Shown piece after piece: positions 6,852-14,427 of a stretch of 22,375 nucleotides of DNA. Below the pieces are notes generated by a model, which was given only the letters and a program-made list of their open reading frames with translations, did no database searches and was not told the origin of the DNA. Each line of letters begins with the position of its first letter. The stretch's first letter is position 1. Source of the DNA: Falciphora oryzae (taxonomy: Eukaryota > Ascomycota > Sordariomycetes > Magnaporthales > Magnaporthaceae); assembly GCA_000733355.1 (NCBI GenBank), contig JNVV01000055.1, positions 160,323 to 182,697 on the forward strand. The letters run 5' to 3'. Position numbers and translations under genes: made by a program.

Positions 6852-7223
6852 TGTTGGAAGGGCAGCAAGAGGTCGCACGACAGGTAGAAGCACGGGCAAG
6901 GGGAATCCCCAATGACTAGGGACTCCGGGACTGAGAGGCCCCGCCTCTCTGACACGGAGGGACCGGCAATGGGGATCACCGGTTATGCACGGAGATCACC
7001 GGTTATGCACGGAGGCGGTGCAAGTCGCAAGTTAGGCCCGGCACCGGGACTGGCCTTGGACGACCGCACCCCGCGGCTTCCGTGATTGGGATATATGTAT
7101 CTAAAGGGCTCGCACGAGGAGCCCTTCCGTTGTTTCTAGAAGACAGACGACTTTTGGATACATATTGAATACCAGAAGCCTTCTCACCCCAACCGTGTTG
7201 GTATACCGACAGTGCCACGAACA
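6852..7223 (+). repeat. 5' LTR of Copia 1 (372 bp)
   Basis: Starts TGTTGGAAGGG and ends CCACGAACA. It is identical to 14056-14427 except for about five G/A differences. It contains two copies of a 20-bp tandem repeat and two perfect TCGYRCGA sites (6873-6880, 7110-7117). I cannot fix a TATA box with confidence; ATATATG near 7091 is the best candidate. Confidence 0.95.
6974..7013 (+). repeat. 20-bp tandem repeat, two units, in the 5' LTR
   Basis: The unit GATCACCGGTTATGCACGGA is present twice without change. The same pair occurs in the 3' LTR at 14178-14217. The Copia 2 LTR has three diverged units. Confidence 0.95.
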
Positions 7224-7596
7224 CTGATCAGTGGGTGGTTACAACCCACAGATTGGCAACGTGAAGAGACGGTTCGTACTGGTTGACGAGGTTGTGAATT
7301 CGCCTCGTGCTATCAGTCCCGTGCTACTGCCCAAGCAACTTTCCCCTATGAACGGCAATCGGAATTAGGGGAAAGGAACTTGGACGGGTTCACCAACCTT
7401 TCGTACGAACGACAGCCGACTGAAAGACGGAGGCCTAGCTCGTGCGGAAAGGGAAGTAAATCGCGCTCCGTTGCGCACACCAGCTTTCTAGCATCTTTAT
7501 TTCTTTTTCCCCTTTTCCTACTTAACATTTCATTTCGTTTTTCCCCCTACCCTTCTACTACACCATTCTTTTACCCTACACCCTCGTACGATCACC
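7224..7596 (+). other. Copia 1 untranslated leader
   Basis: Non-coding stretch between LTR and gag. The minus-strand primer site should begin directly after the LTR, but the sequence there (CTGATCAGTGGGTGGTTAC) does not match the common initiator-tRNA primer sites I know. It forms a small hairpin, GTGGGT with ACCCAC (7231-7249). The part before gag is CT-rich, as in many fungal 5' untranslated regions. TCGYRCGA sites lie at 7401 and 7584, with a one-mismatch site at 7440. Confidence 0.7.
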
Positions 7597-10500
7597 ATGT
7601 CAGGTGAAGACGAGACCCCAGACACACCCGTCGCCGGACCGGCGGGAACATCGCACAAAGCCCATCCTGGCAGGACTCCCCAGGACTGGCACAAAGAGAT
7701 CGCCGAAGGGACAGACATCCCCTTGTCAGCATGGCGCAAGTACGTCGACCCCGAACGCTGGGAAGACGACGTCGACCCAACCCAGCCACTTTCGGTCAAC
7801 GAAATCACAACCTACTTCGCACGATCGGTCGCGGAAACTATCTGGATGTCTATCAGAAGCAAAGCGCTACGTCAAACCTTTCAAAAGGAGTTCGCCGGAT
7901 GGACACACGACCTATTCAACCAAGTCGGTCGTACGTTCAAAAAGCGGATGGACCAACTTCTGATGGAAAATGGGACCCATATCCCAGGAGGAACAGTAAC
8001 GGCCAGGTTCATGCGAGTACTGGACCCTACACCTCCAGACACTCCGTACGAGACACCCACCTTGCAGCCAGCGCAACCAGCACGTCCATCCCGGACACCA
8101 CAGCTTGGACGACAAGCATCCTCGCACGACACAGCCCCAGCTCGGCCAGCCGTCACTCCGGCCAGGGCAGTCCCGATAGCAATCCCTACCGTGGAAGTAG
8201 AACAGCTCCACGACAACACGGATTTCGTGCGGGAACAAACACAAATGTCTAGGATCATCCCACCAGGAGCACGTACGACACAGGAAGTTTGGAACTTCCC
8301 ACAGCTCCCGGAGGATCAAACCCCTCGCACGACCATCCCCCCGATGGAATACAACCTGCCCCCGAAGCTGCCGGTACACAGCTACCCGCTGGAGCCGAAC
8401 AAGATCTCAGCTTTCCAAAAGGGATGGAAAACGGACCGGAATTACACCGGCAAACCGTACGACATCCTGTTCGACAAAGCAAGGATTTTCATCGGCTGCT
8501 GTCAACGACTCCAGATCGAGGAAAACCAGTACCACGCTGTTTTCCCCGATATCCTGTCAGGCCGTGCGGAAGATTTTTATATCAACCATATCGGACCTGG
8601 AAAGCGATGGGACGAGATGTACAAGCTCCTCGATCTTCATTTCAACTCGAAAATCAACCATACGCTCTACTGGACAGACTGGACGTCGACGACGTTCGTG
8701 CGGATGCGCCAAACCCATCCAGACAAGACATTGCCTGAGGTGCTAGAAACGATGCTGGACAAGTTTCAGCTCGCACAAAAAGCTTTGGGTGAAAGCTACC
8801 AAGGGGAGAGTGCCCTCCACACGGTCGTCACTCAAGCATGCCGTGGAATGCCGGAGTTCGAAATCGCACTCCTTACCCAGAAGCCAACGTGCGAAGCTTT
8901 GTTCGCAGACCTCCGAGCAGCACTACAGGTGACAATGGATCGCACGAGCAGGACCCAGTTCCTGTTGGAGGAAGGACCGCACGACGCCAACTATACGGAC
9001 CGACGGTACCATAACAACAACAAACCTCGGACGGGCCAAGGCGGCAATTTCCGGACAGGCGGCGGCGGCAACTACCGGCTAAACAGCAACTTCCAACATC
9101 GCACGAAACTGCGCTGCTATGTGTGCAAAAAGGAAGGATGCTAGTCAACGAAGCACCCACGCAAAGAACAGGAGGGTGCGAAACAACGGTACCTCCAAGC
9201 GTGCGAAAACCTGGGCAACGAAGGAAATAACTTCGAAACATTCCTCCAAAACCACGAAGGCTCACCACCATCGTACGATGAGGAGGAAGATAAACAAACT
9301 CGAGCACCACTAGTGCAATACCTCCAAAATTATGCCTACCTCCATCGCACGACTGGCGAGGACATCTACTAAACCAGTTCGAGCGAAGCGTCGGACCAGT
9401 TCGTACTGCACAACCAGTATAATACGACCTACCAAAGCGAGCTTTGGGATACCGGCGCCGCACGAGTCTCTACAATCGGAAAATGCCAGGTGGAGGCATA
9501 TTTAAGAGAGAACCCCCGTGCGGAAATCGATTGGACGCCAGGATTAACGGAAGTGAGATTTGGAAGAAACAATATGGAAACCTCTATCGGCACGATACGG
9601 ATGGAAAACCCCCTCGGGGAAATTACCTACCATATCCTAAACTCCCAAACCCCATTTCTGTTCTGTTTGCACAACGCCGACAGATTAAAATGTTATTTCA
9701 ATAACGTCGACGATAACATCGTGCGAAAAAACGGAACAACTATTCCTATAATCAGGAAATAGGGGCACCCATTCTTCAACGTAGGTAGTGCGGAAACAGC
9801 AGCATTCCTAACAAAAGAAGAACTTAGGAAGCTCCATCGAAGGTTCGGACACCCTCGTACGGAACGCCTCCATCGACTTCTAAAGGAAGCAGGACATTCC
9901 GACGTAAAAGAAAAGATCCTAGAAGAGATTAGCAAAGTGTGCCACCACTACCAAACACACGACCCGGCCCCCCAACGGTTTAAGTTTTCGATCAAAAATA
10001 ATTGCGAGTTCAATTACGAAATCGTTATCGACATCGTACATTTGGGAGGGAAAAACGCACTGCACGTCATCGATGCAGCAACATCCTTCCAAACTGCGAC
10101 GTTCGTACGATCACTGTCAGCCCAGGACGCATAGAACGCCCTTTGCAAATGCTAAATCTTTGCCTACCAAAGGCCACCAAACACCATCTCGCACGACCCT
10201 GGCACGAACTTCTCGTCGGAAGTATTCCGCAACCACGCTAGGGTGGTAGGAGTGTCGTACAAAAAGATGCCAGTGGAAGCCCACTAGGCTGTCGGGAAGA
10301 TCGAACGAGCGCACCAACCCCTTAAGAGAGCGTACGATATCCTAAAAGAGGAACTTGGATACTACACGGATAACGAAACATTGTTGCAGATGGCAATCAA
10401 AGCATTGAACGACACAGCAGGACCTAACGGCCTCGTGCCAACCCTGCTAGTCTTTGGTGCCTACCCCCGGATCAACCAAAACTCCGCTCCGTCCCCAAAC

Positions 10501-13385: not shown

Positions 13386-14055
13386 GCCGAAGACCGAAAG
13401 AGAAACGACCGCCTAAACGGCAGGCTAAGCGGGCACAAAAGCCATCGTGCGAACCGAGAAAAAGAGTTTAAAAAAGGTGATGGAATCTTCAACTGATAAT
13501 TGAAAGGAAAAGAGAGCTTGAAGGTCGCGCGATAAGAGGTCGCACGATCGGAAAAGACGAAATCGTAGTTATGGTTGTGGTTATTATTATGGTTGTGTCG
13601 CACGGAAAGAAAAGATCAAAAAGGAGGAAAGGAAAGGACGCCTTTTATCCCTACGAGTGGGGAAGGAAGGCGGGCCTCGCACAAAGCAGGCAAATGCCTT
13701 TTGTGTGAAGCTATTCACAGCTCAACCAAAAGAGCCAACGCACACCTCCAACCACCTCAGCACAACTTCCTACCCACACAACCATCCCAACACAATCACC
13801 CAATCCACCGGAAGCTTTGTACGGACCCCAGGTGAATTCCTTTCAAAGCCACTACCCCAAAGAACCCGCTCTTCCTTAAGCCATTAACACAATCACCGTA
13901 CAACGCCCACACTGAGTCACCTAAAAACACCAGTCACCTCCATTGCGTTTCCTTTGTACCACAAAAGCACGCGGAGTCACCTTGGCAGAAGGTGACCTAA
14001 CCATTCCAACTAATCTTGGGAAAGGGACGTGCGACCATAAAAAAAAAACTGCCAA
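13386..14055. other. Copia 1 region between antisense-gene start and 3' LTR
   Basis: I see no conserved coding here. For the antisense gene this is the upstream region and 5' untranslated part: read on the minus strand it is CT-rich and holds a CAACCA-type microsatellite (13568-13598). Nearer the LTR there are several GTCACC repeats and a hairpin, GTCACCTT with AAGGTGAC (13976-13996), kept in Copia 2. Perfect TCGYRCGA sites are at 13445, 13524 (TCGCGCGA) and 13540. Polypurine-tract candidates are GGGAAAGGGA (14018-14027) and the A run at 14039-14048; the second is closer to the LTR. Confidence 0.6.
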
Positions 14056-14427
14056 TGTTGGAAGGGCAGCAAAAGGTCGCACGACAGGTAGAAGCACGGG
14101 CAAAGGGAATCCCCAATGACTAGGGACTCCGGGACTGAGAGGCCCCGCCTCTCTAACACGGAGGGACCGGCAATGGGGATCACCGGTTATGCACGGAGAT
14201 CACCGGTTATGCACGGAGGCGGTGCAAGTCGCAAGTTAGGCCCGGCACCGGGACTGGCCTTGGACGACCGCACCCCGCGGCTTCCGTAATTGGGATATAT
14301 GTATCTAGAGGGCTCGCACGAGGAGCCCTTCCGTTGTTTCTAGAAGACAGACGACTTTTGGATACATATTGAATACCAGAAGCCTTCTCACCCCAACCGT
14401 GTTGGTATACCGACAGTGCCACGAACA
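14056..14427 (+). repeat. 3' LTR of Copia 1 (372 bp)
   Basis: Same length and ends as the 5' LTR. Four of the five differences have A here and G in the 5' LTR, and one is the reverse. It is followed directly by the CTTAC duplication. Confidence 0.95.

What the first reader, a model, noticed from the sequence alone, without database searches (positions are those of the whole stretch)
6873..14321. A copia element carries a palindromic octamer TCGYRCGA every ~60-120 bp over its whole length
About 30 perfect sites and at least as many near-matches occur in 7.6 kb, where chance predicts about 0.5 perfect ones. They cross LTR, leader, gag-pol, antisense gene and 3' non-coding DNA, in every codon phase and both orientations (the motif is its own complement). 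By eye, the roughly 6.8 kb of LINE and Gypsy sequence to the left and the 1.3 kb Gypsy segment in the middle have no perfect site. The even spread means the element's sequence has been shaped to hold the motif, at the cost of codon choice. Possible roles: binding sites for an element-encoded factor, marks for chromatin or nucleosome placement, sites for sequence-specific DNA modification, or self-recognition at integration.
Basis: partly seen in the sequence, partly recalled or inferred. Interest (0 to 1): 0.9.

Follow-up and report, generated by a model that had tools for sequence, protein, structure and literature searches.

The report
Fungal retrotransposon studded with palindromic octamer
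A fungal jumping gene carries one short palindromic DNA word about 30 times along its length, far more often than chance; its protein-coding regions have been bent to hold the word, and relatives appear to keep the density while moving the positions, which suggests a self-recognition tag whose reader may be a small cysteine-rich protein that the element encodes backwards.

Summary
The copia copy at 6852-14431 has 31 perfect TCGYRCGA against 0.45 in dinucleotide shuffles; its open frames have 15 against 1.39 in synonymous-codon shuffles. Genome-wide the octamer is ordinary (3277 in 50.2 Mb), and five other copia loci have 2, 0, 0, 0 and 0. Only the TCG-N2-CGA arrangement stands out, with a YR centre in 31 of 33, as for a homodimer on double-stranded DNA.

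New evidence: peptides that TCGYRCGA can encode are in excess in relatives' Pol proteins. The element's clade (20 tips) scores z 1.3 to 6.3, 15 of 20 above 3; four proteins elsewhere score 3.5 to 7.7; 97 others reach at most 1.5. Positions turn over (3 shared of 13 and 16 at 63% identity), so density, not position, is conserved.

The 'antisense gene' is real: a DUF3716 (PF12511) six-cysteine protein, apparently spliced, with relatives in Magnaporthiopsis, Pyricularia and Colletotrichum. Binding is untested, RIP mutations show no footprint at the sites, and the predicted fold has no PDB match.

The parts
6852..14431 (+). Copia copy 1, carrying 31 perfect TCGYRCGA (66 CGYRCG cores)
6852..7227 (+). 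5' LTR (about 376 bp; end approximate) with sites at 6873 and 7110, which are present in 31 of 33 and 32 of 33 of the aligned loci
7228..7596 (+). Leader with sites at 7401 and 7584
7597..9144 (+). Open gag frame (515 aa, ending near a CCHC-like stretch, by eye); 5 sites in three phases; no Pfam hit
9145..12588 (+). Protease/integrase/RT/RNase H region, broken here into pieces (open frames 10381-11499, 11989-12588); 17 sites; domains identified in the C61 copy
13287..13445 (-). Antisense gene, inferred exon 1 (53 aa from the ATG chosen by alignment to relatives); a TCGYRCGA (13445-13452) overlaps that ATG, two more lie 80 and 95 bp upstream (13525, 13540)
   Evidence: coordinates carried over from the C61 copy
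13217..13286 (-). Inferred 70-bp intron of the antisense gene: GTGTGT, CTAAC branch-like box, CAG (letters read in the C61 copy)
   Evidence: junction IN|DE agrees with relatives
12758..13216 (-). Antisense gene, inferred exon 2 with the DUF3716 domain (about 12931-13090); copy 1 has one TAA inside the domain match
14056..14431 (+). 3' LTR with sites at 14077 and 14314
14432..15712 (.). Gypsy segment between the two copies, no perfect site; the RNase H-like frame 15474-15839 runs over its right edge
15713..22375 (-). Copia copy 2, inverted, cut by the window end; 27 perfect sites, nearly all at the positions of copy 1 (one is only in copy 2, one of copy 1 is broken here)

Best explanation
TCGYRCGA is a self-recognition mark of this copia lineage: a double-stranded DNA site read by a homodimer (two TCG half-sites across a flexible pyrimidine-purine step), kept by selection at roughly even spacing along the whole element, so that a sequence-specific protein can load over its full length and hardly elsewhere in the genome. 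The most likely reader is the element's own antisense, spliced DUF3716 protein, acting on the inserted copy much as VANC acts on VANDAL transposons: keeping it open to transcription or marking it against silencing, perhaps also controlling its own promoter, where three sites sit. Shown: enrichment, spacing rule, evenness of the cores, protein-level excess in relatives with turnover of position, lineage restriction among the proteins listed, and a homology-supported antisense gene.
For: Density 31 against 0.45, and 15 against 1.39 at fixed protein and codon usage. Among TCG-Nk-CGA, k = 0 to 40, only k = 2 stands out (33 against 3.0; next highest 6); the three other TCG/CGA arrangements show nothing of similar size; centre YR in 31 of 33. 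Cores more even than random. Most sites kept across family copies, LTRs included. Protein-level test on the C61 Pol and the 120 listed of 343 relatives: TCGYRCGA is the best of 128 palindromic octamers for 18 of 121 (15 in the element's clade, 3 in the second group). The element's clade (20 tips, support 1.0) scores z 1.27 to 6.33; a second group, picked because it scored above 3, has 3.45 to 7.69; the 97 others reach at most 1.51. Away from the window element's own positions the 19 clade relatives have 168 compatible peptides against 87.5 expected, the second group 45 against 20.2, the 97 others 241 against 459.1. Antisense gene: DUF3716 31.1 bits (cut-off 22) in the C61 copy; relatives in Magnaporthiopsis poae, Pyricularia, Colletotrichum and Lasiosphaeria; shared intron junction. 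Colletotrichum tabaci has both a motif-positive Pol (P0006, z 6.33) and a DUF3716 relative (P0123, listed on 20 contigs).
Confidence: 0.5

Rival explanations
1. The sites are read by a host protein (transcription, recombination or chromatin factor) that the element exploits; the antisense DUF3716 protein does something else.
Against: A host regulator would be expected to need a few sites near promoters, not even coverage of coding DNA. Most of the listed related copia proteins show no excess (97 of 121), although they live in related fungi.
Confidence: 0.25
2. The octamer is a drive signal rather than a reader site: a target of sequence-specific modification, nicking or biased copying between element copies, so that it accumulates like DNA uptake sequences in bacteria.
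For: Even spread through coding and non-coding DNA with turnover of position is what uptake sequences look like (recalled, no call); density conserved and positions not.
Against: No such activity is known for the element. Family copies show little gain of sites: of 7 positions where another locus has a perfect site and copy 1 does not, 6 differ only by C-T or G-A changes of the RIP kind.
Confidence: 0.12
3. RNA-level signal (packaging, dimerisation or translation control) in the genomic RNA.
For: The plus strand favours TCGCACGA (18) over TCGTGCGA (4).
Against: The element's plus strand is rich in A and C, which favours that form; this was not tested formally. A symmetric rule with any YR centre makes sense for double-stranded DNA, and the commonest form TCGCACGA is not self-complementary as RNA.
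Confidence: 0.06
4. By-product of mutation (RIP) or composition with no function.
For: RIP here spares CpG (3-11% against 18-66% in CA/CT contexts), and its commonest change within the octamer keeps it inside TCGYRCGA, so the sites survive RIP well.
Against: Neighbouring DNA and other copia loci have 0 to 2 sites; the little-mutated C61 copy has 21 in 4.6 kb; shuffles fail; proteins of other species show the excess.
Confidence: 0.02

Closest known systems
VANC / VANDAL sequence-specific anti-silencing in Arabidopsis (PMC5735166, passages read; PMC10398659, abstract and section list read)
   Same: A transposon-encoded extra protein and a short motif (YAGTATTAY for VANC21) concentrated in the element that encodes it; effects along the whole element; motifs differ between families.
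   Different: [quoted passage not shown] here they are single, dispersed sites through LTR, leader, gag-pol and 3' DNA of an LTR retrotransposon, with amino acids affected. Binding and demethylation are shown there, not here. Homology of VANC and DUF3716 was not tested.
Retand and Grande type antisense ORFs between pol and 3' LTR in plants (PMC11963269, passages read)
   Same: Antisense gene in the pol-3'LTR interval; the author suggests DNA binding and a regulatory role.
   Different: Retand is a plant Gypsy lineage with TRP28 (PF04195) and tandem repeats; here a fungal copia element with an apparently spliced DUF3716 gene and a dispersed octamer.
DNA uptake sequences (DUS/USS) of Neisseria and Haemophilus (recalled, no call)
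   Same: Short word spread through coding and non-coding DNA, shaping peptides.
   Different: Bacterial, genome-wide, tied to natural transformation; here concentrated in one element lineage.
Subterminal repeats bound by TnpA of maize Spm (recalled, no call)
   Same: Element-encoded protein binding many short sites in its own element.
   Different: Sites clustered at the ends of a DNA transposon.

Membership tests
Ty1/copia LTR retrotransposon | Long terminal repeats flanking the element | tested here: met
   Direct repeat 6852-7151 / 14056-14355 at 98%; about 376 bp by alignment of other copies
Ty1/copia LTR retrotransposon | Copia-type RT (PF07727) | tested here: met
   The C61 copy matches at 5e-5 but with 23.5 bits, below the curated 31.6 (27.1); the nine closest relatives (56-66% identical) all carry PF07727
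Ty1/copia LTR retrotransposon | Integrase before reverse transcriptase | tested here: inconclusive
   Order is right (gag_pre-integrs at residues 104-151, RT at 548-766 of the C61 pol frame), but both matches lie below their cut-offs
DUF3716 (PF12511) | Profile score over the curated cut-off | tested here: met
   31.1 bits against 22 for the C61 copy; 32.1 and 30.9 bits for the two window copies; 16 of 17 members of A4 match at E up to 1
Zn2Cys6 (Gal4-type) DNA-binding proteins | Match to the Pfam zinc-cluster profile | tested here: not met
   Not among the hits at E up to 10 or 1; six conserved cysteines are spaced in a roughly similar way (by eye; the Gal4 spacing is recalled)
VANC-type anti-silencing system | Motif enriched in the encoding transposon | tested here: met
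[quoted passage not shown]
   Single dispersed sites, many inside coding frames; flanks not repeated
VANC-type anti-silencing system | Encoded protein binds the motif and removes silencing marks | not testable with these tools
   needs EMSA, ChIP or bisulfite data
Retand-type antisense aORF | Antisense ORF between pol and 3' LTR | tested here: met
Retand-type antisense aORF | TRP28 domain (PF04195) | tested here: not met
   The Pfam scan of the antisense frame gives DUF3716 only

The most novel reading that the evidence does not exclude
A fungal LTR-retrotransposon lineage encodes, antisense, its own sequence-specific DNA-binding protein (a DUF3716 six-cysteine protein, a new kind of DNA reader) and has rewritten its whole length, coding sequence included, into an evenly spaced array of that protein's palindromic site, so that the protein coats and protects or activates only its own kind; the same word recurs in Pol relatives down to about 49% identity while the sites themselves have turned over.
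Probability: 0.38. Interest if true: 0.92.

Novelty: new variant of a known kind. Interest (0 to 1): 0.78.

Why it matters
I know of no other retrotransposon that maintains a dispersed recognition word through its protein-coding sequence, and none showed in the listings, which cover open-access papers only and of which I saw the top rows. It would give a testable function to the antisense genes that some retrotransposon lineages carry between pol and the 3' LTR, and to DUF3716, a domain for which the library held one paper with a passing mention. It also suggests that such motif selection can be detected from protein sequences alone.

Tried and rejected
Periodicity at helical or nucleosomal lengths: no clear signal. 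RIP shadow around the sites: a dip close to the sites in raw rates vanished after correction for sequence context. The idea (note) that TCGTACGA is only the RIP product of TCGCACGA: rejected, since TA stands at shared sites in both oppositely mutated copies and in the little-mutated C61 copy. My note that sites are conserved in all copies was too strong. Other DUF3716 loci as carriers of motifs of their own: L059 to L062 show none by k-mer scan; L058 has a multi-copy DUF3716 frame near an integrase-like frame, without a comparable octamer. The same k-mer scan of other copia loci found no motif of like strength. DNA of relatives: a scan of viral contigs with the Pol alignment matched 50 stretches, none a relative; metagenome scans were capped at 0 and not tried. 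Solved structures: no sequence match below E 0.69, no fold match; the DUF3716 part was not folded alone, so a missing match there shows little. Listings on strand-biased RIP and on Pyricularia copia elements were not followed up.
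Full report
What is there. The window lies on contig C55 of a 50.2-Mb genome. The relatives of the antisense gene suggest a Sordariomycete near Magnaporthales; this is inference. Two copies of one copia family face each other: copy 1 at 6852-14431 and copy 2, inverted, from 15713 to beyond the window end, with a Gypsy segment between. 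A third copy on contig C61, held from its middle to its 3' end, is little mutated and served as reference for genes; its pol frame too has a stop before the RNase H end.

The motif. Copy 1 holds 31 perfect TCGYRCGA. Dinucleotide shuffles give 0.45 (maximum 4 in 300), shuffles in 200-bp blocks 0.48, and synonymous-codon shuffles of three open frames 1.39 (maximum 5 in 1000) where 15 are seen. In the C61 pol frame 13 are seen against 1.77; 0 of 2000 shuffles reach 13. Genome-wide there are 3277 in 50.18 Mb, close to the 3061 of the control pattern. Of the half-site arrangements tested (four, spacers 0 to 40), only TCG-N2-CGA stands out, 33 against 3.0. The centre is CA 18, TA 8, TG 4, CG 1, AG 1, AA 1. 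The core CGYRCG occurs 66 times, T before it in 40 and A after it in 50; the flanks carry little information. Density runs from 2.0 to 5.4 per kb over the seven segments. The 31 sites are only marginally more even than random (P 0.053); with two positions broken in copy 1 but present in 13 and 16 of the overlapping loci the evenness is clearer (P 0.004), and for the 66 cores 0 of 20000 simulations are as even.

Within the family. The LTR and pol searches gave 57 loci (L001 to L057), which overlap, include the window's own copies, partial copies and solo LTRs. One search used aligned pieces of 300 bp or more and could judge 27 of the 31 sites; the other four (8940, 9099, 9271, 9345) could be compared with copy 2 only, where they are present. 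Most sites are widely shared, but not all: 12308 is in 5 loci and absent from at least 12, and 10502 is in 11 and absent from 9. Losses are mostly C to T or G to A at the CpGs. RIP here hits TCA and TCT most (about 65%), other CA/CT contexts 18-41%, and CpG 3-11%. The most RIP-prone positions of the octamer are thus its two central ones, where the change stays within YR. That makes the array durable but does not create it: neighbouring DNA has none, and five other copia loci have 2, 0, 0, 0 and 0 (L066 is about 43% masked, and L057 is a short locus with a 66% match).

Beyond the genome. DNA of relatives was out of reach, so I tested proteins. In its three frames TCGYRCGA can encode S[HYCR][DE], [FILV][AV]R, or R[AT] between limited neighbours. 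For the C61 Pol and the 120 listed of 343 relatives (only the 7996 candidates sharing most words were scored there) I compared counts with residue frequencies, for this octamer and 127 other palindromic octamers. TCGYRCGA ranks first in 18 of 121 proteins, 15 of them in the element's clade and 3 in the second group; for the element's own partial Pol it ranks third (z 3.97). On the tree (midpoint rooted) the element's clade has 20 tips (support 1.0), z from 1.27 to 6.33, 15 of 20 above 3. Four proteins elsewhere (P0031, P0039, P0061, P0062), picked because they score above 3, have 3.45 to 7.69; their smallest common clade has 10 tips, the other six at -1.59 to 1.51. The 97 proteins outside both groups reach at most 1.51. 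Positions differ: own and P0006 (63% identity) share 3 of 13 and 16; own and P0061 (49%) share 4 of 12 and 21. Away from the own positions the 19 clade relatives still have 168 against 87.5 expected, the second group 45 against 20.2, while the 97 others have 241 against 459.1. Members are related, so these sums are not independent trials, and the second group was chosen by score. Still, density is kept while position is not, which is hard to explain without selection for the word itself.

The antisense gene. The C61 copy has an open antisense frame that matches DUF3716 (31.1 bits, cut-off 22). Protein searches find relatives in Magnaporthiopsis poae and Pyricularia grisea and then in P. oryzae, Colletotrichum and Lasiosphaeria (18 proteins at E up to 1, the first two included). 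P0123 of Colletotrichum tabaci is listed on 20 contigs and the P. oryzae cluster P0125 holds 71 sequences; whether these are copies or strains cannot be told from the listing. The relatives' N-terminal part lies in another antisense frame upstream, joined by an inferred 70-bp intron with GTGTGT, CTAAC and CAG; the junction IN|DE agrees with the relatives, and P0134 appears to read through it. An intron in antisense orientation would survive retrotransposition of sense RNA. One octamer overlaps the inferred ATG and two lie 80 and 95 bp upstream. In copy 1 the domain match has one TAA, in copy 2 no stop. The six cysteines suggest a zinc site (inference). The model of P0001 (pLDDT 79, pTM 0.68) has no PDB match. 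The DUF3716 relatives themselves show no clear excess of octamer-compatible peptides (rank 1 for 1 of 18); they are short.

How it may work. A palindrome with two fixed 3-bp half-sites and a free YR step is the usual footprint of a homodimer on DNA (general knowledge). Coverage of the whole element, rather than a promoter cluster, suggests that the whole inserted copy, or its full-length cDNA, must be recognised. The element carries one extra gene that homology supports, and Colletotrichum tabaci has both a motif-positive Pol and a relative of that gene. I therefore put the DUF3716 protein first as reader and VANC-like anti-silencing first as purpose, at about even odds; a host reader is the main rival. 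Against it: no binding data, no recognised DNA-binding fold, no RIP shadow (15 loci against the C61 copy), and no known gene-motif link in the second group or in P. oryzae, whose one labelled Pol in the list scores -0.43.

Literature. In open-access papers the nearest ideas found are VANC/VANDAL and Retand antisense ORFs. Three papers hold one of the octamers as a word, unrelated by their titles (listing only). 'DUF3716' gave no paper and PF12511 one, with a passing mention in a Colletotrichum gene comparison (passages only).

Noticed in passing
7789-14218 against 15946-22375: RIP-like changes are almost strand-exclusive: in element orientation copy 2 has C>T and copy 1 has G>A (541 against 20 the other way), which is C>T on the window's minus strand in both inverted copies, as if one RIP event had worked on one strand over both. 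Six other inverted pairs in the window lean the same way more weakly (197 against 93 summed).
   Followed up: partly
13287-13445 and 12758-13216: An apparently spliced antisense gene inside an LTR retrotransposon, with an intron position that agrees with relatives in other genera.
   Followed up: yes
L058:3284-6771: A DUF3716 frame in a 596-bp repeat (two identical copies either side of an assembly gap; 25.3-bit hits also on contigs C40 and C89) lies next to a frame that looks integrase-like by eye and TGTACACCCC repeats, perhaps a second mobile element that carries DUF3716.
   Followed up: partly
Pol relatives P0068 and P0092: In these two proteins another palindrome, CTGYRCAG, is the best-fitting octamer (z 5.5 and 5.1); P0068 groups with P0039, P0061 and P0062, so a switch of motif is conceivable. 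Best of 128 tested in 120 proteins, so chance is not excluded.
   Followed up: no
L032 pol frame residues 471-482: An AT-hook-like stretch between integrase and RT (12.2 bits; 14.5 in the window frame; below the Pfam cut-off of 17.4).
   Followed up: no
880-1790 against 14428-15333: Inverted repeats of 86-91% link the left part of the window with the Gypsy segment between the two copia copies.
   Followed up: no
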